Positions 1 to 62,042 of a DNA stretch of 64,000 nt are shown in pieces. Position 1 is the stretch's first letter. Each line of letters starts with the position of its first letter. The translations under genes were made by a program, and so were the position numbers. Under the pieces are notes generated by a model. That model did not search any database. It saw only the letters and a program-made list of their open reading frames with translations, and was not told where the DNA came from. Origin of the DNA: Rhodospirillaceae bacterium (GTDB taxonomy: Bacteria > Pseudomonadota > Alphaproteobacteria > Rhodospirillales > Rhodospirillaceae); assembly GCA_947476695.1 (NCBI GenBank), contig CANJRD010000007.1, forward strand, positions 124,001 through 188,000, written 5' to 3'.

Positions 1-3000
1 CTGAAGGCTGCGATCTGGCTCGTGCTCAGCATGTCGAGCTGGGTCGTGGTCAGGCTGGCGATTTGCGTTGCGGTGAGTGCGGCAAGGCGCGTGCCGGCGA
101 AGGTCGCCAACTCGGTCTGGGTCAGCGAGGCGATCTGCGCGGTCGTCAGCGTCGCGAGCTGCGTCGTGCTCAGCGCGGCGAATTGCGTCGAATTCATCGA
201 TGCGATCTGCGTCGTGAGCAGGCCTACGATCGCCGCCGGGGTCAATGCGCCGATCTGCGTGGAGCCCAGCGCATCGAACTGCGTTGTGCTGAGCGCCGCG
301 AGCGTCGAGCCGTTCAGACCCTTGGCCTGCGTCGTCGTCAGTTGGCCGATCTGGCCGTGGGTAAGCGTGCCGATCTGCGTTGAGGTCAGGGTATTGAGCT
401 GCGTGGCGCTCATGCCTGCAAACTGCGTGCTGCTGAGGCCGGATAATTGCTCGGCCGTCAGTCCGGCCAGCGCGGTGGCATTGATGGACGCAATCTGGGT
501 CGAGACCAGCACGGCCATCTGCGTCATATCGAGTGAGCCGATTGCCGTGGCGGTGAGGCCGGAGACGCCGGTCGCGGTCAGAGCGGCGATCTGGCTTGCG
601 CTCAGTTCGTCGATCTGGGTGTCGCGCAGGCCCGCGCTCGTCACGCCGGTCAGCGCGGCGATCTGCGTGGTCGTCAGGCTGCTGACCTGGCTGGCGCTGA
701 AGGCGCCCAACACGCTCGCGGTGAGGGTGCGGATCTGCGTTGCCGTCAATGCGCTGAGCTGGCTAGCTTGCAACGATCCGGCCTGGGTCGTCGTCAGCGG
801 GCTCAAGCTGGACAGCGATGAAATCTGGGTTGTCGTCAGCGACCCGAACTGCTCGCCGCTCAAGGCGTTCAGAGCCGTCGGCGCGAGCGCGGCGACTTGC
901 GTGGTGGTCAGCGCACGCAGCTGGTCGGTGCTCAGGGTGGCGATGTCGCTGGTCGGCAAGTTGCCGACCTGTGTGGTCGTCAGCGCGGCTATTTGCGCGG
1001 TGCCGAGCGCGCCGAACTGCGTGGTGGTCAACGCGGCCAGCGCGCCGGTGCTGAGGTTGGCGATCTGTGTCGTCGACAGGCCGGTGATCTCGGCGGTGGT
1101 CAGCACGCCGAACTGCGTCGTGGTGAAGGCTGATATCTGCGTGCCGCTCAGGCCTGCCATCTGCGCCGGCGACAGCGCGATGATGTGGGTCGTATCCAGG
1201 CCCGTGAGGGTCGTCTGGGTCAGAACCGCCATCTGCGTCGGCGCCAAAGCGCCGAACTGCAGTTCGTCCATGATCACGATCTGGCTCGCCGTCAGACCGC
1301 CCGTCTGGCGTACGCTCAAGCCGGCGATCTGCGCGGGTGTCAGCACATCGATCTGTGTCGTGGTGAAGGCGGTGATCTGCGCGGGCTGCAGCGCGCCCAG
1401 CTGCGCCGTGTTCATCGCCGCGAACTGTGTCTGGTTGATGCCGCGTACCGCATTCAACGACAGCGCGGTCATCTGCGTCGTGGTCAGGGCGGCGAACTGG
1501 TCCGCGCCCAGCGCGTTCATCTGCGCCGACGACAGCCCGGCCAGCTGCGTCGGCGTGATCATGCCCAGCTGGGTCGTCGTGAACATCGCGACCTGATCGG
1601 TCCCGAAGGCGGTGATCTGGGCCGGCAACAGGCCCGCGAACTGCGTGCGTGTCAAAGCCGCCATCTGGTCGCTGGTCAGCGCTTTGATTTGTGTCGCACC
1701 CAGGCCGCCGATCTGCATCGCGCTTAGCGCACCGAACTGAGAGTCCGATAGCGATTCCATCTGATCGGACGTCAGGAACCGCAGTTGCGTGGACGACAAC
1801 GCCGCGATCTGGCTGGTGCTGAACGCATCAATCTGCCCCAACGCCAGCGCGCCGATCTGGGTGGTGGCGAAGCTCTTCACCTGCGTCGGCGTCAGCTGGG
1901 CAATCTGGCTGGACGACAGGGAGGCAAGCTGGGTCTGCGTCAGGGCCAGGATCTGAGCACCCGTCAACGCGCCGACCTGGTCCCCACTGAGCGCGCCGAG
2001 CTGGACGACGGTGAGATTGCGGATCTGTGCCGCGCTCAATCCGCTGAACTGGGAGTTCAAGGCATTGAGCTGATCCTGCGACAGCAGCGAAGCACTGGTG
2101 GCGCTCAGGCCCTTAACGATCGCCGGCGCCATCGCGGTGATCTGATCGGGCGTCAGCACCTGCACCTGCGTGCCGCTCATCGATGCGACCTGCAGCGAGG
2201 TGAAGCTCTTCACCTGCGCTGGGGTCATCGCCGCGAGCTGATCGGTACTGAGCACCTTGATCTGCGCCGGGGTCATCACGGTGATCTGGGCATTCGTCAA
2301 TGTGGCGACCTGCGTGGTCGAGAGCATTGCCGCTTCGGTCGTGCTCAGGGCTTTGATCTGCGTGACCGTCAGACTGCCGATCTGCGTCGCATTCAGCGTC
2401 TGGAACTGTTCCGGCGTCAGGCCGACAACCTGCGCGGCGCTCAGGCCGCGAATTTGCGAAGCCGAAAGCGCCGCAACCTGGGTCGTCGACAGCGCGCCAA
2501 GCTGCGCGACCGTGAACGAGGCAAGCTGCGACGGCCCGAGTGCGGCAAGCTGGGTCGCGGGCAGGGTGGAAATCTGCGTGGAGGACAAGCCGCGCAGCTG
2601 CGCCGGGGTAAGTGCTGCGATCTGCGTCGTCGACATCGTGCTCAGCTGCGTCATCGACAGGCTGGAGACTTCCGCCGCGGTGAAACCTTTCAGCTGCGCA
2701 ACGCTCAGCGCGTTGATCTGGGCAGGATCGAGGGTGCCGACCTGCGTCGTCGTCAGAACGGCGAGCTGGGCGGCCGTCATGCCTTGAAGCTGGGTGGTGC
2801 CCAGGGCCGCGATCTGTGCGCCGCTCAGGCTTTTGATCTGGGTGGGCGCGAGATAGCTGATCTGACCGGGCGACAAGGCCGCGAACTGCGTGGGTTCAAG
2901 CTCGCCCAGCGTCGTGACCGTCAGCGCCTTGATCTGCACGGGCGAAAGCCAGCCGATCTGCTCGGCCGAGAGCGCGTCCATCTGGGTCGATTGCAGGGCC

Positions 3001-3683
3001 GCGATGCTCGCCGCACCGATGGCGCGGAACTGGGTCACCGACAGGCCGGCGATCTGGGTCTGATTCAGGGCTTTGATCTGCGTCGCCGACAGCGAAGTCA
3101 TCGCGGTGGCGGACAGGGCGCCAAGCTGCGTGGTGCTGAGCGCGGCAATCTGGGTCGTCGTCAGCCCGCGCGCCTGGGCGGCGCCAAAGGCGGCGATCTG
3201 GGTGGTGCCAAGGGCGCCGATCTGAACGTCGTTGAGGGTCTGCAACTGGGCGGCATTCAGGGACGACACTTGATTGGGCAGCAGCGATGAGAGCTGGTTC
3301 GGCGTCAGCACGCTGACTTGCGCCGGCGTCAGCGCCTGCATTTCAGCAGGCGTCAGGCCGCGAAGCTGTTGGGTCGACAGGGCGGCGATGTCGGCGACGT
3401 CCAGCGCCTGGATCTGCGCCTTCAACAACACCGAAAGCTGGCCGGGGCTGAAGCTGAGCTGATCGGGGCTGAGCGCGGCGATCTGGGTCGCCGTCAGCGC
3501 CACCATCTGGGTGTTCGCCAGCGACGCCAGCTGCGTGCCGCTGAACGCGGTGATCTGCGTGACCGTGAACGCGCCGATCTGCTTGGCGTTCAGGCTTTGG
3601 ATATCAGCCGTCGTCAGCGAGTTGATCTCGCTGTTGGAGAGGGCGGCAATCTGCCCCAACGACATGCTGGAAACGGAAGTCAC
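1..3683 (-). CDS. Giant 10-residue-repeat protein, 3' end outside window
   Basis: Reading the minus strand gives one uninterrupted frame of about 1,227 codons that runs off the left edge. The frame at the start (codon 3663-3665) and at the edge (15-17) is the same, so there is no net frameshift. Almost the whole product is a degenerate 10-residue unit of the type L-T-x-x-Q-I-x-A-L-x, with Gln followed by Ile, Val, Leu, Phe or Met in nearly every unit. I saw no Cys, few charged residues and no signal peptide: repeats begin within about ten residues of the start. GTG at 3683 (product MTSVSSMSLG...) is preferred because a GGGG stretch lies about 9 bases upstream; ATG at 3665 is the alternative. 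Long plus-strand frames opposite it are shadows that keep changing frame. A repetitive secreted or surface solenoid is an inference; a type I secretion signal could lie in the missing C-terminus. Function unknown. Confidence 0.8.
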   Translation of the reverse strand, partial: MTSVSSMSLGQIAALSNSEINSLTTADIQSLNAKQIGAFTVTQITAFSGTQLASLANTQMVALTATQIAALSPDQLSFSPGQLSVLLKAQIQALDVADIAALSTQQLRGLTPAEMQALTPAQVSVLTPNQLSSLLPNQVSSLNAAQLQTLNDVQIGALGTTQIAAFGAAQARGLTTTQIAALSTTQLGALSATAMTSLSATQIKALNQTQIAGLSVTQFRAIGAASIAALQSTQMDALSAEQIGWLSPVQIKALTVTTLGELEPTQFAALSPGQISYLAPTQIKSLSGAQIAALGTTQLQGMTAAQLAVLTTTQVGTLDPAQINALSVAQLKGFTAAEVSSLSMTQLSTMSTTQIAALTPAQLRGLSSTQISTLPATQLAALGPSQLASFTVAQLGALSTTQVAALSASQIRGLSAAQVVGLTPEQFQTLNATQIGSLTVTQIKALSTTEAAMLSTTQVATLTNAQITVMTPAQIKVLSTDQLAAMTPAQVKSFTSLQVASMSGTQVQVLTPDQITAMAPAIVKGLSATSASLLSQDQLNALNSQFSGLSAAQIRNLTVVQLGALSGDQVGALTGAQILALTQTQLASLSSSQIAQLTPTQVKSFATTQIGALALGQIDAFSTSQIAALSSTQLRFLTSDQMESLSDSQFGALSAMQIGGLGATQIKALTSDQMAALTRTQFAGLLPAQITAFGTDQVAMFTTTQLGMITPTQLAGLSSAQMNALGADQFAALTTTQMTALSLNAVRGINQTQFAAMNTAQLGALQPAQITAFTTTQIDVLTPAQIAGLSVRQTGGLTASQIVIMDELQFGALAPTQMAVLTQTTLTGLDTTHIIALSPAQMAGLSGTQISAFTTTQFGVLTTAEITGLSTTQIANLSTGALAALTTTQFGALGTAQIAALTTTQVGNLPTSDIATLSTDQLRALTTTQVAALAPTALNALSGEQFGSLTTTQISSLSSLSPLTTTQAGSLQASQLSALTATQIRTLTASVLGAFSASQVSSLTTTQIAALTGVTSAGLRDTQIDELSASQIAALTATGVSGLTATAIGSLDMTQMAVLVSTQIASINATALAGLTAEQLSGLSSTQFAGMSATQLNTLTSTQIGTLTHGQIGQLTTTQAKGLNGSTLAALSTTQFDALGSTQIGALTPAAIVGLLTTQIASMNSTQFAALSTTQLATLTTAQIASLTQTELATFAGTRLAALTATQIASLTTTQLDMLSTSQIAAF

Positions 3684-7965: not shown

Positions 7966-8117
7966 CGCTCTCACTCCGCGTACACTTCGTTTGCGACGCT
8001 ACCTGAAGAGGGCTGCGGAATCGACAGTAACGTCCATCACGTGAGCCCTTATCGCGCGCCGCGCGATTGTCCGGCGGATGTTTCCGCATATACTTTTCGG
8101 CGGTCAGGAGACAACGC

Positions 8118-9245
8118 ATGTCATTGCGCCGTTCGGTTCTCACGCTCAGCATTCTCGGACTCTGCGCCTGCTTCGCGGCGCCCGTTGCGGCGGCCGACGG
8201 CGGCACCCTCGGCTTCGTGGTCCGCGAGTGGTACATCGCGCTGCATGAGTCCAAGTTCATGGACGAGTGCCCCGAAGGCCTGACCATGGGCAATGACGAG
8301 ATCTGGTGGCGCAGTGCGCCGAAAGATTTTCGCGCCAAGGTCACCGACAACGGCTTGGCGCGATCCTCGATCCGGTATTACGAAGTGATGGATCGCGGCA
8401 AGAACGGGGAAGACGTCTGTCTCAACCCGACCTCCATCGTCGACCCACCGCTGCGCGTGGTCGAAGGCAAGATCGGCTACGGCCATAACATCGACGGGAC
8501 CCAAGACGGTCACGCGACGGCGAAAACCTGCAAGCACGACAAGTTCCAATCGCCTGACGGCAAGAAGACCGACATCGACAATCAGATGGCGCGCCTCGTC
8601 GGCTGCAGCTTCGGCTGGCGCAAGACCGGCATGATTCAGCTGAACGGCAACGAAGTGCGCGCCACCTCCGGTTACGGCATGGTGCTGATGGAAGTCACCG
8701 GCGTGAATGAGAAGGACCCGCGCAACTCCGACAATGTCACGGTGACGTTCTATCGCTCGATCGATCAATTCGCGATGGACAGCGCGGGACAACCGTTGCC
8801 GTTCTCGACGTACCGCATCGATACGCTGGACGGAAAGCCGCGCTATTCGGACTCGCTCAAGGGCAAGATCACGAACGGTGTCCTGACGACCGAGCGCGGC
8901 GACGTGCGGTTGCCGGCCTACGACAACTTCAACTTTGGCCATCCCACCATCAAGGACATGGCCGTGACCCTGGAGATCGCCGCCGACGGCAGCGCCGGCA
9001 AGGGCATGGTCTCCGGTTACTATGATGTCGAGGAGTTCTGGTACCTGACGGCTGGCGTGGGCCAGGTGCTGCAGACAGGCCAGTTCAGCTGTCCCGCGAT
9101 GTATGTCGCGGCGCACAAGCTGGCGGATGGGTACCCCGATCCCAAAACCGGCGAATGCACGCATCTGTCCGTGGGCTACAACGTAAAGGCCTATGCCGCC
9201 TTCGTGCAGCACCCGGATAAAGAGCGGCGTCAGGCGACCCGATAA
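8118..9245 (+). CDS. Secreted protein, first copy of a family duplicated at 17125
   Basis: The 375-residue product has a Sec signal peptide (hydrophobic segment to about residue 30, cleavage near AAPVAAADGG). The mature protein has conserved Cys residues (DECPEG, EDVCLN, KTCKH, VGCSFGW, FSCPAM, GECTH) that probably form disulfides. Much of it can be aligned by eye with the product of 17125-18237, with shared blocks ESKFMDECPEGL, DPPLRVVEG, DGHATAKTC and MYVAAHKLADGYPDPKTGEC. I do not recognise a named domain. ATG 8118 follows AGGAG by 7 bases. The two copies face each other around the DUF1592/DUF1552/TonB block, which suggests that their function is tied to that block. No function can be assigned. 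Confidence 0.8.
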   Translation: MSLRRSVLTLSILGLCACFAAPVAAADGGTLGFVVREWYIALHESKFMDECPEGLTMGNDEIWWRSAPKDFRAKVTDNGLARSSIRYYEVMDRGKNGEDVCLNPTSIVDPPLRVVEGKIGYGHNIDGTQDGHATAKTCKHDKFQSPDGKKTDIDNQMARLVGCSFGWRKTGMIQLNGNEVRATSGYGMVLMEVTGVNEKDPRNSDNVTVTFYRSIDQFAMDSAGQPLPFSTYRIDTLDGKPRYSDSLKGKITNGVLTTERGDVRLPAYDNFNFGHPTIKDMAVTLEIAADGSAGKGMVSGYYDVEEFWYLTAGVGQVLQTGQFSCPAMYVAAHKLADGYPDPKTGECTHLSVGYNVKAYAAFVQHPDKERRQATR

Positions 9246-9428: not shown

Positions 9429-11108
9429 ATGCGTCGTAAGTTCAAAGATCTGCCGCTGCGAGGCGTCGTATTGGCGACGGCCTTGGCCGTCCTGACGGCT
9501 TGCGGCCCGAAGGAACCGGCCAGCGAAGGTGGCACGCCGGACCTGCGGCGTCTGACTGAAGAACAGTACCGCAACACCATCGCCGATGTTTTCGGTCCGA
9601 CAATCACGTACGGCGGTCGCTTCGATCCTTTGCAGCGCACCGATGGCTTGATTGCGCTGGGCGCACGCACCGCGCGCGTCACGCCGTCGGGCTTCGAGCA
9701 GTACTACGCGCTGGCGGACTCGATCTCGGCACAAGTCGTCGATGAGGCGCATCGCGAAACGCTGGTGGCGTGCAAGCCCGCGTCCGCGACAGCAGCGGAC
9801 GATGCCTGCGCGCAAGCATTCTTCGGCGAGATTGGCCGGGTGCTCTATCGCCGGCCGTTAACCGACGGCGAGATCAAGACCGCCGTTACCGCGGCGCATG
9901 AAGTCGGCACGACCACGGGCGATTTCTACCAGGGCCTCGCCTATGGCCTGGCCGGTATGATGACGACGCCGAAGTTCCTGTTCGTCGTCGATGCCACCGA
10001 ACCCGATCCGGATCATCAGGGTCAAGTACGCCTGACGTCGTACGCGCATGCGAGCCGTCTGAGCTTCCTGCTGTGGAACTCCGCGCCCGACGACATGCTG
10101 CTGACGGCGGCGGAGAAGGGCGAGCTCTATTCCAAGTCGGGGCTCGAGAAGCAGATCGAGCGCATGGTCGCCTCGCCGAAGGTTGAAGGCGGCGTGCGCG
10201 CCTTCTTCACCGACTTCCTTGACCTGCGCAAATTCGAGACGCTGCAGAAGGATCCGGTGATTTATCCGGCTTTCAACGCGAAGACGGGCGAGGACGCGAA
10301 GGAGCAAATCCTGCGCACCATCACCGATCACGTCGCCACGCGCGATCTCGACTACCGCGATCTATTCACCACGCGCCGCACTTTCCTCACCCCGGCGCTC
10401 GCGCGCATCTACAAGGTGCCGGCGGGGCGGCCTGACGGCGGTTGGACAGACTACGAGTTCCCGGACAAGGACCTGCGCGGCGGTCTGTTGTCCCAGATCG
10501 GATTCCTGGCCGTGAACGCGCACCCGGGCCGCAGCTCGCCGACAATCCGCGGGCGCGCGATCCGCGAGACGTTGCTGTGCCAGAAGGTGCCCGATCCGCC
10601 GGGCAATGTGGATTTCTCGCTGTTCAATGATCCTGACTCGCCGAACAAGACTGCGCGCCAGCGCCTGACGACGCATGCCACAAACCCGACCTGCGCCGGA
10701 TGCCACAAGATCACCGATCCGATCGGTCTGGGTCTCGAGAACTTCGACGGCGTGGGCAGTCTCCGCATGGCCGAGAACGGCGAGGCCATCGATCCCGCCG
10801 GCGATCTCGATGGTGTGGCGTTCAAGGACCCTGCCGGGCTCGCCAAGGCCATGCGCAAAAGTCCCGCGGCCCCGACCTGCCTCGTCAACCGGCTCTATGC
10901 CTATGCGCTCGGCCGCCCGATCGAGACGTCCGACAAGGACACGGTCGCCTATTTCCAACAGGTCTTCGCGCGTGACGGTTATCGCGTGCCGCAGTTGTTG
11001 CGGCGCATCGCCGGCAGCGATGCCTTCTTCAAGGTTCGCCCGCCCAAGGCCGACGCGGCGACTCAAGCTGCGACGAACGATTCAGCACCGAAGGAGAACC
11101 CCTCGTGA
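9429..11108 (+). CDS. DUF1592/DUF1588/DUF1585-type lipoprotein with a haem-type motif
   Basis: The 559-residue product has a lipoprotein signal with lipobox LTAC near residue 25, then DLRRLTEEQYRNTIADVFG, typical of DUF1587. DUF1595/DUF1592-like regions follow (RRPLTDGE; RLSFLLWNSAPDD; FFTDFLDLRKFE). Next come a DUF1588-like segment (RGRAIRETLLCQKVPDPP) with a C-x-x-C-H sequence TCAGCHKITDPIG, and a DUF1585-like C-terminus. This architecture is known from planctomycetes and proteobacteria, always near DUF1552 or DUF1501 partners, but its biochemistry is not established to my knowledge. The CAGCH motif suggests covalent haem, so an electron-transfer role is an inference. It overlaps the downstream DUF1552 gene by 4 bp (GTGA), indicating translational coupling. 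Confidence 0.85.
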   Translation: MRRKFKDLPLRGVVLATALAVLTACGPKEPASEGGTPDLRRLTEEQYRNTIADVFGPTITYGGRFDPLQRTDGLIALGARTARVTPSGFEQYYALADSISAQVVDEAHRETLVACKPASATAADDACAQAFFGEIGRVLYRRPLTDGEIKTAVTAAHEVGTTTGDFYQGLAYGLAGMMTTPKFLFVVDATEPDPDHQGQVRLTSYAHASRLSFLLWNSAPDDMLLTAAEKGELYSKSGLEKQIERMVASPKVEGGVRAFFTDFLDLRKFETLQKDPVIYPAFNAKTGEDAKEQILRTITDHVATRDLDYRDLFTTRRTFLTPALARIYKVPAGRPDGGWTDYEFPDKDLRGGLLSQIGFLAVNAHPGRSSPTIRGRAIRETLLCQKVPDPPGNVDFSLFNDPDSPNKTARQRLTTHATNPTCAGCHKITDPIGLGLENFDGVGSLRMAENGEAIDPAGDLDGVAFKDPAGLAKAMRKSPAAPTCLVNRLYAYALGRPIETSDKDTVAYFQQVFARDGYRVPQLLRRIAGSDAFFKVRPPKADAATQAATNDSAPKENPS

Positions 11109-58381: not shown

Positions 58382-59362
58382 CTACGATTCGCTCACCACG
58401 ATTGCGTCGGGCTCCAGCCCAGCCGTCGCGCGAGCATGCATCTTCTCGAAGGCTGCCTCTAGATGTCGCGCGAAGCGCTTGCCATCGAAAAGCGGGCTAG
58501 ATGTTCTGTTGAATTCGAGTTTTCGTCGCACCGCGGCCAATTTCGCGGGATCAAGAGCCAAGTCAATCGCCCGCGCTTCGTACTCTTGCTGCGAGTGAGT
58601 TATCGGTTCAGGTAGGTCTACGGCAGTAAGAAGGCTCGCGGCGACACGACTAGCAAATGATTCTCCCATTCGCGTCAGCACAGGGAGCCCGGCCCAAAGT
58701 GCGTCGCTCGCCGTTGTATGAGCGCCATACGGAAAGGTGTCGACAAACAAGTCCGCCAATCTCTGACGCGCCAAGTGCTCGTCCAGAGGCATCCATTTTG
58801 CAAAGATCAAGCGACGACTATCTATGCCTCTTGCCTCAGCTTCCCTACGTAAATTCCCGGCAGCGGTTGGATTATCTTCGAACAGCCACAGTATGGCGTG
58901 CGGCACGGCGTTAAGTATCCGCATCCAGCCGTCAAAGGTCGCCGGAAGAATTTTGTAATTGTTGTTGAAACAACAGAAGACGAAGCTCGACTTCGGTAAC
59001 CCCAGATCCTCACGAATAAAGCTCTTGCCGGAAATCTTGCGTTTCGAATCGTTGGCTTGATAGCAGTGCGGAAGGTAGACGACCTTTTCCGTGAAGTTGG
59101 ACTGGGCGTTTGGCGGTATGACAATTTCATCGGCTATCACATAGTCGATGAACTGGGCGCCCGTGGTTCCAGGGTATCCAAGATAGGTAGCTTGCACGGG
59201 CGCGCAGCCTTCGCCTAACGCGCTAATCCTGTTGTCCCGCGTATGCCCCTTGAGGTCGACTGCGATATCGACTGCGATATCGATTGCGGTCTCACGCGAC
59301 AATTCGGCAATTTGCTTGTCACTCAAGGACCGGACGTTGAAAAAGTTATCGACCGCTGAGGT
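58382..59362 (-). pseudogene. Truncated O-GlcNAc-transferase-like gene (GT41, C-terminal part)
   Basis: About 325 codons of a family 41 glycosyltransferase remain. From the truncated end: SLSDKQIAELSRETAIDIAVD...LKGHTRDNR, PVQATYLGYPGTTGAQFIDYVIADE, CCFNNNYKILPATFDGWMRIL (Lys of the UDP site kept), FVDTFPYGAHTTASDALWAGLPVLT (His-Thr-Thr...Asp kept). The TPR region and N-terminal catalytic lobe are missing. At about 59360 the coding sequence passes into the IS3 remnant. The IAVD segment is doubled by a 12-bp tandem repeat near 59260-59285. As it stands it cannot be a complete transferase. It lies on the same strand as the TPR-PRMT gene. Confidence 0.75.
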
Positions 59363-59900
59363 TAAGCCCCTCACGCCGCCACAGTCGTTCAACCCGCTTC
59401 TTGTTGACCGACCAACCCGCTGTCCGAAGCATCTTGGTGATGCGACGATAACCGTAGCGCCCATACTCCCGGGCCAGTTCGATTATGTCCGCGGTCAAAG
59501 CTGCTTCGTCGTCAGGTGATTGCGGGACCTTGCGCTGCGTGGAGCGATGTTGGCCAAGAACCCGGCAGGCGCGCCGTTCGGATACGCCCAGTTCAGCGAC
59601 CACATGATCCACACACGCCCGGCGGCGCGCGGGGCTTAGAAGTTTCCCTTGGCGGCCTCACGAAGGATCTGCTTGTCCAGCGTTAGGTCAGAGACCGCGC
59701 GGCGCAGCCGAGCATTCTCCGACTCAAGTTCCTTCAGACGCTTAACCTGGTCGCCCTTCAGACCGCCGTACTCGTTACGCCAGCGGTAGTAGGTCACTTC
59801 GGTAACCCCAATTGCTCGGATCGCATCCGCAATCGACCGTCCTTGGGCGCTCAGAACATCAACCTGCCGCAGCTTCGCAACGATCTCTTCGGCTGAGGCT
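59363..59900 (-). mobile_element. IS3-family insertion sequence remnant (parts of orfA and orfB)
   Basis: On the minus strand orfA runs from about 59900 to its stop at 59636-59638: AEEIVAKLRQVDVLSAQGRS, GVTEVTYYRWRNEYGGLKGDQ, then the leucine-zipper-like VKRLKELESENARLRRAVSDL. orfB follows in another frame with VVAELGVSERRACRVLGQHRS and GYRRITKMLRTAGW, and stops after RLWRREGL. The first codons of orfA and about two thirds of orfB with its DDE core are missing, and no terminal inverted repeats are seen. It is inactive. It joins two unrelated gene fragments, which suggests deletion or recombination after insertion. Confidence 0.85.
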
Positions 59901-60494: not shown

Positions 60495-62042
60495 CTATTG
60501 GACGCTGACGAAATCGACGCGAAGGGCGCTGCGGGCGTAGAAAACTTCCAGCCGCACCCGCTCGCCGGCCTGCAACTGGACTGGCGTCGCGAAGGTAAAT
60601 AAATTGGGCGACCAATGTCCCACGCCGAGCTCGCCTGTACCCGGCGTGTTCTCGAAAGATGCGGCCTCATCAAAGTCGACGCGGAGCCACTGGATAACCC
60701 CGTGGCAAAGTCCGGCCGACGTCACCTCAACGTTGATCTCCCTTTTCTGGGTTGGGAAGGAATCGTCGTTCTGAAAATCAAAATTGAACAGGTCGATCGG
60801 TTCAGATAGCCACTTTATGTCCGCCCCAGGGGGAATCCCCGGCAGCACCAATGGGGAGAATGCATTGGTTGCCGAAACGTCAAAGCCGCAGACCCGATCG
60901 ACGCGGATCGACTTTGCAAGTGTACTGCTGGCAATGAGCCCGCCGCATATGGTCGCCCGAGCAGGAATGATCGTCGCGCCCGGTTTGAGCAATCTCGCTT
61001 TCGCGTCTTCGAGGCTGATCAGCACGTCTTCATCAATGAGTTGCGATCCAAAAATCTCGCTGATGAGGACATCGGCCCTCTCCGGCAAATCGACACCGAC
61101 GACAAGTTCGGTCGAGCGCTTGGGTACGACCGTGATGATGTGGGAGAGATGGTTGGCGGCAATGTTCTCTTTCGCCACTTCAGCCAATAGAGAGTTCGCT
61201 TCGCAAGTCACGACACGGCTCGCGCCACACCTGGCCGCGAGCATGGCCAAAAGGCCGCCACCAGTGCCGATCTCGAAAACGAGTTGATCTGGATGGATCT
61301 TGCGCGCAATGCCTTCCGAATACGTGAGGTTGCGTGAGGCGTCATTCATCATGTTGAAATGCCACGTCGGCACCAATTTTGTCCCGAGCGCACGTCGGCT
61401 GTAGGCATAGCCCCGATCGCTTGGCTCAATCCTGCTTGCGGCAGCAGCGCGGGTGTAGGCGGACTCGCGGTCTCCCAGATTTGCGGCAAGGTAAGCGCTC
61501 GCATGCCAGGCGCTGGCATCGGATGGTTTGATCGCGAGAAGGCGGTCCACGTATGTCAACGCCTCCCGATCGAGCTGTGATTCCCGGCAAACATCGACAG
61601 CGGTGCGCAGCGCCGCCTCGTGATCCGGCTGCTCCTCCAGGAATCCCTGTGCAACGGCGAGCGCGTCTTTCCACGCCTTACGAAGGACATGACAGTTGAT
61701 GAGTTCGAGAGTGGCTTCCACCCGGGTTGGCGGGTTGCGGTCTACGGCATTGCGCAAAGCGACGGCCGCCGCGTCTAGGTCGCCAAGCTTGAGATGGGCT
61801 TCTCCCAGAAGGTGCCAATACTTGCCATTGGACGGGTTGCTCGCGGCGGCGGCGGTAGCGTGCGACACAGCATCCTCAAACCGCCCGCGCCTGAACGCGA
61901 TGAGGGCCAGAAGCTTTAGCGCTTCGCCGTTTTGCGGCTCCAGACGCAGCGCGTCCAGGTAACACTGCTCCGCCTCGTCGAGGCGGCCACACTTTTGATG
62001 CGCGAGGCCAGCTTCGAGCTTTTCAAGAACATCAGTCATCAT
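60495..62042 (-). CDS. TPR-protein arginine methyltransferase (PRMT-like)
   Basis: The 515-residue product has TPR repeats over about residues 1-215 (AGLAHQKCGRLDEAEQCYLDALRLEPQNGEALKLLALIAF and following). A PRMT-type domain follows: VFEIGTGGGLLAMLAARCGA (motif I), VVTCEAN (post-I), and SEIFGSQLIDEDVL, which fits the double-Glu loop. CHGVIQWLRVDFDE and GHWSPNLFTF correspond to the beta-barrel and the THW loop (Thr replaced by Gly). The TPR-PRMT order recalls eukaryotic PRMT9. Arginine or protein N-methylation is inferred; the target is unknown. It lies near the broken TPR-OGT-type gene. The start is the first of two ATGs. Confidence 0.8.
   Translation of the reverse strand: MMTDVLEKLEAGLAHQKCGRLDEAEQCYLDALRLEPQNGEALKLLALIAFRRGRFEDAVSHATAAAASNPSNGKYWHLLGEAHLKLGDLDAAAVALRNAVDRNPPTRVEATLELINCHVLRKAWKDALAVAQGFLEEQPDHEAALRTAVDVCRESQLDREALTYVDRLLAIKPSDASAWHASAYLAANLGDRESAYTRAAAASRIEPSDRGYAYSRRALGTKLVPTWHFNMMNDASRNLTYSEGIARKIHPDQLVFEIGTGGGLLAMLAARCGASRVVTCEANSLLAEVAKENIAANHLSHIITVVPKRSTELVVGVDLPERADVLISEIFGSQLIDEDVLISLEDAKARLLKPGATIIPARATICGGLIASSTLAKSIRVDRVCGFDVSATNAFSPLVLPGIPPGADIKWLSEPIDLFNFDFQNDDSFPTQKREINVEVTSAGLCHGVIQWLRVDFDEAASFENTPGTGELGVGHWSPNLFTFATPVQLQAGERVRLEVFYARSALRVDFVSVQ

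What the first reader, a model, noticed from the sequence alone, without database searches (positions are those of the whole stretch)
1..3683. Protein built entirely of a 10-residue L-T-x-x-Q-I-x-A-L-x repeat
Over 1,200 codons without a stop hold more than a hundred degenerate copies of one decapeptide, with no other domain, no Cys and no signal peptide. The 30-bp period is clear in DNA, but copies differ, so it is an old, selected repeat rather than a recent expansion. Its role and fold are open; it could be a new solenoid type or a surface filament.
Basis: partly seen in the sequence, partly recalled or inferred. Interest (0 to 1): 0.75.

Follow-up and report, generated by a model that had tools for sequence, protein, structure and literature searches.

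The report
Giant eight-residue helical repeat exoprotein
The window holds most of a giant protein built from an eight-residue repeat that is predicted to coil into a rod of tiny helices; relatives of it lie beside dedicated secretion and protein-glycosylation genes, so it is probably a sugar-coated surface or matrix protein of environmental bacteria.

Summary
The repeat is real, but its unit is 8 residues (24 bp), not 10 (30 bp). The gene runs past the window edge: 1,832 codons, about 231 octads, no Cys, no second domain found. It belongs to a named Pfam family, PF20080 "ALTTAQ repeat" (E 2e-166), and matches one solved PDB chain by sequence, 9zem "HeliScrew4" (profile E 8e-26). AlphaFold2 gives a confident solenoid with one short helix per octad (pLDDT 92-94).

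The new part is the genomic company. ALTTAQ genes in alphaproteobacteria, Magnetococcales, Spartobacteria and Pseudomonas often sit beside HlyB/HlyD-type secretion genes and/or TPR+GT41 (O-GlcNAc-transferase-type) glycosyltransferases, mostly of subfamilies confined to ALTTAQ carriers: 12 of 13 ALTTAQ-positive relatives carry one or both, against 1 of 48 negatives. The window's own genome has such a secretion locus beside another ALTTAQ copy and one GT41 of the specific clade. One relative has ALTTAQ repeats inside a VCBS/cadherin adhesin-like protein.

Best reading: a cytoplasmically O-glycosylated, type I-secreted, RTX-less surface or matrix rod. Against it for this copy: no secretion or GT41 gene lies beside the window gene, and its position-3 Ser/Thr is low. 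Glycosylation, export and adhesion are inferred, not shown.

The parts
3..3683 (-). 5' 1,227 codons of an ALTTAQ (PF20080) octad-repeat gene; the last 605 codons and the stop lie outside the window (G000:C7:122185-124000)
   Evidence: open frame; Pfam PF20080 E 2.2e-166, 37 stretches; 8-residue period; whole gene in L011:10186-15684 minus
3054..3683 (-). N-terminal 210 residues incl. N-cap (VTSVSSMSLGQIAALSNSEI...), aligned with nine homologues; modelled as a helical solenoid
   Evidence: alignment A2; AlphaFold2 pLDDT 92.2, pTM 0.81

Best explanation
The gene encodes a giant, secreted, one-helix-per-octad solenoid. In each octad L-[S/T]-x-x-Q-[I/L/V]-x-A, positions 1 and 6 form the core, S/T at 2 is the helix N-cap and Q at 5 its capping-box partner, positions 3-7 are a short (four to six residues) helix and the small residue at 8 makes the turn (helix positions from the model; core and capping box are inferred). 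The chain is made in the cytoplasm without a Sec signal. Its Ser/Thr are O-glycosylated there by dedicated TPR-GT41 enzymes of the OGT type, whose TPR part recognises the repeats. It then leaves through a HlyB/HlyD type I exporter that reads the conserved C-terminal end ([AGS]F-T-x-x-Q-x-x-x-M-[ST]-x-x-Q...), and folds outside into a rigid, nearly uncharged, sugar-coated rod for adhesion, aggregation or matrix. Shown: repeat, family, predicted fold, a C-terminal end shared by most members looked at, and linkage of the family to T1SS and GT41 subfamilies. Inferred: glycosylation, export, surface role, and that this unlinked copy uses the exporter and GT41 encoded elsewhere in the genome.
For: Fold: AlphaFold2 pLDDT 94.1/pTM 0.85 (C-terminal 200 aa), 92.2/0.81 (N-terminal 210 aa). 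Exporter: in the own genome an ALTTAQ gene directly follows HlyB-like (TIGR01846 E 1.8e-179, below its cut-off; best solved match HlyB E 3e-134) and HlyD-like genes (TIGR01843 E 4e-85, over cut-off); that HlyD is the only one listed for this genome over the cut-off. A profile of this HlyD subfamily (A1) reaches >=633 bits in 8 of 61 relatives, all among the 13 ALTTAQ-positive, next 406 (seven of the eight built the profile); in the class scan >=515 bits in 3 of 385, all among the 6 positives, next 401. Loci that did not build it: Magnetococcales, Spartobacteria, Niveispirillum, Pseudoroseomonas and L103, L104 have it beside ALTTAQ; 0 of 21 control loci do (rechecked with an octad profile). Glycosyltransferase: the one linked GT41 compared with the PDB matches OGT (E 9e-88) and XcOGT (9e-85); linked GT41s fall mainly in two clades (5 label changes against 17.3 shuffled, 0 of 500 as low). 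A clade-1 profile (A4) gives >=640 bits in 10 of 61 relatives, 9 of them positive, next 523; >=1000 bits in 4 of 385, all positive, next 506. Of the 20 best ALTTAQ plasmid hits, 12 have GT41 in the fetched 12-22 kb (10 within 1 kb) and 4 have T1SS. ALTTAQ repeats occur inside a VCBS/cadherin protein in G200.
Against: The window gene has no T1SS or GT41 gene beside it (10 kb on the far side; the window side read to 12 kb; the window's own GT41 is 54.7 kb away), nor do three type-A homologues L048, L055, L057 (L057 seen on one side only). Its position-3 S/T is 0.37 against 0.50-0.95 in 13 linked members, so it may be less glycosylated. 8 of 20 plasmid hits lack GT41 and 16 of 20 lack T1SS in the stretch. 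Exceptions: HlyD subfamily without ALTTAQ in L105 (=L068) and L106; clade-1 GT41 in ALTTAQ-negative G058; ALTTAQ without either in G003 and, in the class scan, in G100 and G200 (G262 has the GT41 only). Seven A1 rows and several A4 rows come from the scanned genomes and score high by construction. The C-terminal F/M pattern is absent in two GT41-linked members, L047 and L053. No T1SS target model matched eight fragments. Several linked loci are MAG contigs. Linkage is not proof of substrate.
Confidence: 0.6

Rival explanations
1. The unlinked (type-A) copies, including the window gene, are cytoplasmic scaffolds or spacer rods; only the linked members are secreted and glycosylated.
For: No exporter or GT41 beside the window gene or its type-A homologues L055, L057 (one side seen), L048; position-3 S/T 0.30-0.39 with 10-18% Pro in these four, against 0.50-0.95 in 13 linked members.
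Against: Type-A-like N termini also occur beside GT41 (L047, L050; L052/L053 in one genome). The window gene shares the C-terminal end of the T1SS-linked L058 and L061. No Cys, very low charge (D+E 3.2%, K+R 1.9%) and huge size suit an exoprotein.
Confidence: 0.25
2. The GT41 is not aimed at ALTTAQ proteins but at flagellin or another surface protein, and clusters with them because both belong to a cell-surface island.
For: FlmG (TPR + GT-B) O-glycosylates flagellins in Caulobacter (PMC7591256, abstract and passages); one ALTTAQ/GT41 pair lies next to flagellar genes (Rhodovastum) and several near polysaccharide genes.
Against: Two GT41 clades track ALTTAQ across several families, often in immediate adjacency (0-857 bp in 10 of 20 plasmid loci), while the six other own-genome GT41s in the tree (L148-L152, L080) do not join them.
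Confidence: 0.15
3. A beta-solenoid or TpsA/haemagglutinin-like adhesin, as the annotation 'large exoprotein involved in heme utilization or adhesion' suggests.
For: Name of the ALTTAQ gene in Cereibacter sphaeroides ATCC 17029; large repetitive exoprotein.
Against: Models are all-helical without a strand at mean pLDDT above 92; no haemagglutinin domain found by Pfam in the window part; T1SS neighbours rather than two-partner ones in the annotated loci read.
Confidence: 0.03
4. A neutral, slipping microsatellite-like open frame without function.
For: Repeats; recent expansion visible in a relative (576-bp spacing of Pfam matches in Niveispirillum).
Against: Octad order is conserved between species and synonymous sites are near equilibrium; only 11 register breaks over about 231 octads; sharply position-specific residues.
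Confidence: 0.02

Closest known systems
Pfam PF20080 ALTTAQ_rpt
   Same: Same octad repeat; window protein scores 539.7 bits against a cut-off of 26.4.
   Different: The match names a repeat only; I saw no role, exporter or modification attached. No paper holding 'ALTTAQ' was found; the three listed papers matched by the string 'pf20080' are unrelated by title (12 of 18 papers listed).
PDB 9zem 'HeliScrew4'
   Same: 8-residue repeat aligned over 108-109 residues (phmmer E 3.4e-15; profile E 7.7e-26).
   Different: 120 residues, mostly T/S-P-E/D-Q/K where ALTTAQ has T/S-x-x-Q. Whether natural or designed is unknown to me; no paper found. It is not among the rows of the fold comparisons.
FlmG-flagellin O-glycosylation (Caulobacter)
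   Same: Cytoplasmic glycosyltransferase with N-terminal TPRs that modifies an exported surface protein (PMC7591256, abstract and passages).
   Different: Substrate is flagellin, exported by the flagellar apparatus; here a T1SS and an octad solenoid. The sugar is unknown here, and I did not test whether FlmG falls in the linked clades.
HMW1/HMW1C two-partner system
   Same: GT41-family enzyme encoded with a large exported adhesin (listing and starts of abstracts: PMC3012730, PMC3983070).
   Different: HMW1C is an Asn-glycosyltransferase with two-partner export; of three linked GT41s scanned, two hit the NGT model at 21.5 and 29.4 bits against a cut-off of 1000 and one not at all.
BapA of Paracoccus denitrificans
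   Same: Giant simple-repeat protein encoded beside a T1SS, needed for biofilm (PMC5588039, passages).
   Different: Asp-Ala dipeptide repeat, acidic, predicted to bind calcium; ALTTAQ is a nearly uncharged octad, and no glycosyltransferase was mentioned in the passages read.

Membership tests
PF20080 ALTTAQ repeat | score over the curated cut-off | tested here: met
   539.7 bits against 26.4, 37 stretches
HeliScrew-like helical solenoid (9zem) | sequence similarity | tested here: met
   phmmer E 3.4e-15, profile E 7.7e-26 over 109 residues
HeliScrew-like helical solenoid (9zem) | same three-dimensional fold | tested here: inconclusive
   models are one-helix-per-octad solenoids; 9zem is not among the listed fold matches (library up to 2026-04-08); best were mesothelin (Foldseek E 8.4e-6, TM at most 0.45) and Armadillo chains (Z at most 6.4)
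T1SS substrate (window gene) | exporter genes beside it | tested here: not met
   none beside the window gene; one in the same genome beside another ALTTAQ copy (L015)
T1SS substrate (ALTTAQ family) | exporter genes beside members | tested here: met
   for many members, not all: L015, L058, L061, L064-L067, L084, L085, L103, L104, L108-L110, L129, L130, L136; absent in 16 of 20 plasmid loci
T1SS substrate | C-terminal secretion signal | tested here: inconclusive
   shared C-terminal F and M in 13 of 18 members; no T1SS target model matched in eight fragments
RTX proteins | glycine-rich calcium-binding nonapeptides | tested here: not met
   no RTX Pfam match at E<=1 in the 1,227 residues of the window part
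OGT-type GT41 system | GT41 of the OGT type with TPRs linked to the gene | tested here: met
   for family members, not for the window gene itself; OGT type tested on one of them
OGT-type GT41 system | Ser/Thr of the substrate carry sugar | not testable with these tools
   needs mass spectrometry
HMW1C/NGT N-glycosylation | match to the NGT equivalog | tested here: not met
   21.5 and 29.4 bits against cut-off 1000 in two of three linked GT41s scanned, none in the third
Leucine-rich repeat proteins | strand-turn-helix units | tested here: not met
   models have no strand; LRR sequence matches far weaker than 9zem

The most novel reading that the evidence does not exclude
ALTTAQ proteins are an undescribed kind of RTX-independent type I exoprotein with its own cytoplasmic OGT-type O-glycosylation: a three-part, patchily spread system (octad-helix rod, TPR-GT41 pair, HlyB/HlyD exporter) in Alphaproteobacteria, Magnetococcales, Verrucomicrobiota and Pseudomonas, in which glycans keep the rod exportable and then coat a long surface fibre.
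Probability: 0.35. Interest if true: 0.8.

Novelty: new variant of a known kind. Interest (0 to 1): 0.58.

Why it matters
A named repeat family without a known role gets a testable place: two glycosyltransferase clades and an exporter subfamily track it across distant bacteria. If right, it is a natural test bed for how OGT-type enzymes recognise a highly periodic substrate, how a T1SS moves an RTX-free giant, and how bacteria build sugar-coated rods. It would also correct annotations such as 'heme utilization or adhesion'.

Tried and rejected
10-residue unit: rejected. LRR, Armadillo or mesothelin kinship: not filed (sequence matches weak; TM at most 0.45 in the listed Foldseek rows; VIA-align Z at most 6.4). 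One phage receptor-binding chain (7qlr_C) aligned at rmsd 2.2 over 105 residues, Z 5.0: not followed. Viral models: best E 3.6e-6 to uncultured phage proteins, TM at most 0.43; not followed. No phage record matched by protein at E 1e-5. A longer last helix as a secretion signal: dropped, since the artificial end of the N-terminal fragment is modelled the same way (11 and 10 residues). N-glycan sequons: 14 among 42 Asn; not pursued since the enzyme tested is OGT-like. Thr at position 4 as a universal acceptor: rejected, it is rare (0.05-0.13) in the Pseudomonas, Rhizobium, Rhodovastum and Cereibacter genes; position-3 S/T is the commoner feature (linked 13 against unlinked 11 of the 25 genes, L014 left out, Mann-Whitney p 7e-4, post hoc). 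First genome-contig scan with the repeat found no relative; the second, with the exporter alignment, worked. L074, a repeat beside an exporter, is a Pro/Glu-rich false positive of my filter. Paper searches for the name, motif and linkage gave no description of this system (listings only, apart from passages of PMC7591256 and PMC5588039); one open-access library, no preprint server.

Counts and dropped rows. My first ALTTAQ filter missed the repeats of G200 in L089; an octad profile then found them and found none (all E above 1) in the 21 controls, L105, L106 or L107. The 21 controls are L091-L095, L111-L119, L121-L127 (L127 has no HlyD hit at the script's threshold); one, L091, holds a GT41 above 200 bits. 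L120 dropped (adaptor cut by contig end); L107 untestable (contig ends). L099, L100, L101, L102 and L105 are taken as the same records as L064, L065, L066, L058 and L068, from matching contig lengths and scores. Near-copies in the 20 plasmid loci: {L131,L133}, {L132,L142}, {L138,L144-L147}, {L139,L141}; in 13 groups GT41 is in 9, within 1 kb in 7, T1SS in 4. L128 is the Niveispirillum locus L084. L135 shows one side only. The GT41 tree is a quick one on the 51 rows that passed my score and length limits; the window's GT41 was too short and left out. L078, counted unlinked, lies about 6.5 kb from an ALTTAQ gene; L079 and L076, counted linked, about 13.5 and 10.6 kb.
Full report
WHAT IS THERE. 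A minus-strand frame runs from a GTG at 3683 to the window edge and on to a stop at G000:C7:122185: 1,832 codons. Autocorrelation shows an 8-residue/24-bp unit, not 10/30. A phase-tracking script finds about 231 octads with 11 register breaks; position 1 is L/F/I/M in 99%, 2 is S/T/N/D in 82%, 5 is Q/E in 82%, 6 is I/L/V/F/M in 95%, 8 is A/G/S in 78%. The chain is nearly uncharged (D+E 3.2%, K+R 1.9%), has no Cys and 26% S+T. Synonymous sites keep almost no memory of duplication, and octad order is conserved in the same-genus orthologue L055.

FAMILY AND FOLD. Pfam places it in PF20080 ALTTAQ_rpt at E 2.2e-166; no NCBIfam model matched at E 1. The PDB holds one clear sequence relative, 9zem 'HeliScrew4' (phmmer E 3.4e-15; profile of 18 C-terminal segments E 7.7e-26); LRR chains follow far behind. 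AlphaFold2 on alignments of homologues gives confident models for the C-terminal 200 residues (pLDDT 94.1, pTM 0.85) and the N-terminal 210 (92.2, 0.81): a series of short helices, four to six residues, one per octad, typically at octad positions 3-7. I read S/T at position 2 and Q at 5 as a helix capping box (inference from general knowledge of helix capping). Foldseek and VIA-align found only distant superhelical resemblance (mesothelin, Armadillo); 9zem was not among the listed rows, so identity of fold is untested.

PARALOGUES AND RELATIVES. The own genome has further copies on C25, C5, and at the end of C12 and the start of C15. In the loci read at first, complete ALTTAQ proteins of about 500 to 4,750 residues consist of repeats from a short N-cap to a short C-cap, with two kinds of N terminus. 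Of 18 C-terminal ends, 14 share the F, 14 the M and 13 both; GT41-linked L047 and L053 have neither. Two relatives are composite: a Pseudomonas protein has an extra C-terminal region (L130), and in G200 a run of ALTTAQ repeats (112 bits) lies inside a 1,143-residue frame with VCBS (175 bits) and bacterial cadherin-like domains, 2 kb from a frame with RTX repeats (L089). That composite supports an extracellular setting for the repeat.

EXPORTER LINKAGE. In the first 22 loci, chosen only because they hold ALTTAQ, three have an ABC + HlyD pair directly upstream (L015 own genome, L058, L061) and five a GT41 within 1 kb (L047, L050, L053, L058, L061). The ABC protein is HlyB-like (TIGR01846 E 1.8e-179, 598 bits, under its cut-off of 725.6; solved HlyB E 3e-134) and HlyD is over its cut-off. 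A profile of seven such HlyD (A1) separates sharply: 8 of 61 relatives at 633 bits or more, all within the 13 ALTTAQ-positive, the next at 406 (Fisher p 4e-7, which ignores relatedness and the fact that seven of the eight built the profile). In the class scan 3 of 385 reach 515 bits or more, all among the 6 ALTTAQ-positive, the next at 401; G100, G200 and G262 are ALTTAQ-positive without it. In the named collection, of loci L099-L110 (430 bits or more) 9 of 12 have ALTTAQ on the same stretch; four of the nine repeat records that built the profile. Of the eight not used to build it (L103-L110) five have ALTTAQ (L103, L104, Magnetococcales L108, Spartobacteria L109 and L110), L105 and L106 do not, L107 ends too early. 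Of 21 control loci none has it. A Pseudomonas plasmid shows ALTTAQ within 3 kb of a different T1SS type, with TolC in the same stretch.

GLYCOSYLTRANSFERASE LINKAGE. The neighbours are TPR + GT41 proteins (PF13844 E 1e-59 to 6e-99); the one compared with the PDB is closest to OGT 110 kDa and XcOGT chains. Among the 20 best plasmid matches to the window repeat (of 57 records), 12 have a GT41 in the fetched stretch, 10 within 1 kb; 4 have T1SS (9, 7 and 4 of 13 after collapsing near-copies). A quick tree of 51 GT41 domains needs 5 label changes against 17.3 in shuffles (0 of 500 as low): one clade of 19 rows (17 counted as linked) and one of 7 (all linked), SH-aLRT 100 each; linked L108 and L110 fall outside both. 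Niveispirillum and Pseudoroseomonas carry one of each side by side. A clade-1 profile (A4) is at or above 640 bits in 10 of 61 relatives, 9 ALTTAQ-positive (exception G058), next 523; at or above 1000 bits in 4 of 385, all ALTTAQ-positive, next 506 (Fisher 4e-7 and 2e-8; without genomes that built the profile 2e-4 and 8e-5). Exporter subfamily or clade-1 GT41 is present in 12 of 13 ALTTAQ-positive relatives (not G003) and 1 of 48 negatives (Fisher 1e-10, profile-building genomes included). In the class scan 4 of 6 positives have one or both, 0 of 379 negatives at these bit levels. The own genome holds one clade-1 GT41 (L079, C15:14616-16691), about 13.5 kb from the ALTTAQ 3' end on the same contig.

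MECHANISM. Precedents: FlmG of Caulobacter, a soluble TPR + GT-B enzyme, O-glycosylates flagellins and its TPR part binds the substrate (PMC7591256, abstract and passages); BapA of Paracoccus, a giant simple-repeat protein beside a T1SS, is needed for biofilm (PMC5588039, passages). I therefore propose cytoplasmic O-glycosylation of a Ser/Thr-rich octad rod, type I export by its C-terminal end, and a surface or matrix role. Position 3 is S/T in 50-95% of octads in 13 linked members and 30-79% in 11 unlinked ones (post hoc), which would fit position 3 as an acceptor.

THE WINDOW COPY. It has neither gene beside it, nor do three of its type-A homologues, and its position 3 is S/T in only 37% with 17% Pro. 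Either it uses the exporter and GT41 encoded elsewhere in the genome, or type-A copies have diverged in role. I give 0.6 to the family-level model applied here and 0.25 to the intracellular rival.

VERDICT. A real, old, selected repeat of a named family with one solved sequence relative. The linkage to a specific exporter subfamily and two OGT-type clades was not found described in the searched open-access library.

Noticed in passing
window 8067-9245 and 9429-11108; L011:1276-2397 and 3-1283: Two pairs of look-alike genes (an exported protein with ...TLGFVV...; a lipoprotein-like one with ...RRLTEEQYRNTIADVFG) flank the ALTTAQ gene on both sides at several kb (likeness seen by eye in the ORF lists).
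   Followed up: no
window 58382-59464 (-): A GT41 gene without its TPR part (360 aa); too short for the GT41 tree. A 515-aa protein with TPR-like and methyltransferase-like stretches (by eye) lies at 60495-62042.
   Followed up: partly
L089:7559-10987 (G200): ALTTAQ repeats embedded in a VCBS/cadherin-like giant protein, beside a frame with RTX repeats: the octad repeat can be a module of a classical large adhesin.
   Followed up: partly
L084:10672-16611 (Niveispirillum cyanobacteriorum, from cyanobacterial aggregates): Best Pfam matches in this ALTTAQ gene recur every 576 bp (24 octads), a recent higher-order expansion, unlike the window gene.
   Followed up: no
L013:5256-6884 (own genome C5): A Pro-rich protein with EF-hand-like segments (by eye) follows a 604-aa ALTTAQ gene on the same strand; a calcium link is possible.
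   Followed up: no
L129:9139-14259 (Pseudoroseomonas cervicalis plasmid): The ALTTAQ gene beside T1SS and two GT41s is split over several frames in the deposited sequence; assembly error in repeats or decay.
   Followed up: no
L015, L061, L066, L067, L103, upstream of the ABC gene: A protein of about 515-640 aa with a weak match to the GT41 profile (TPR only by Pfam in L015 and L061) precedes the exporter genes; role unknown.
   Followed up: partly
The genome search control set: Of 14 named control genomes only Caulobacter vibrioides has ALTTAQ, and only it and Synechococcus elongatus have GT41: a laboratory model may hold the system.
   Followed up: no
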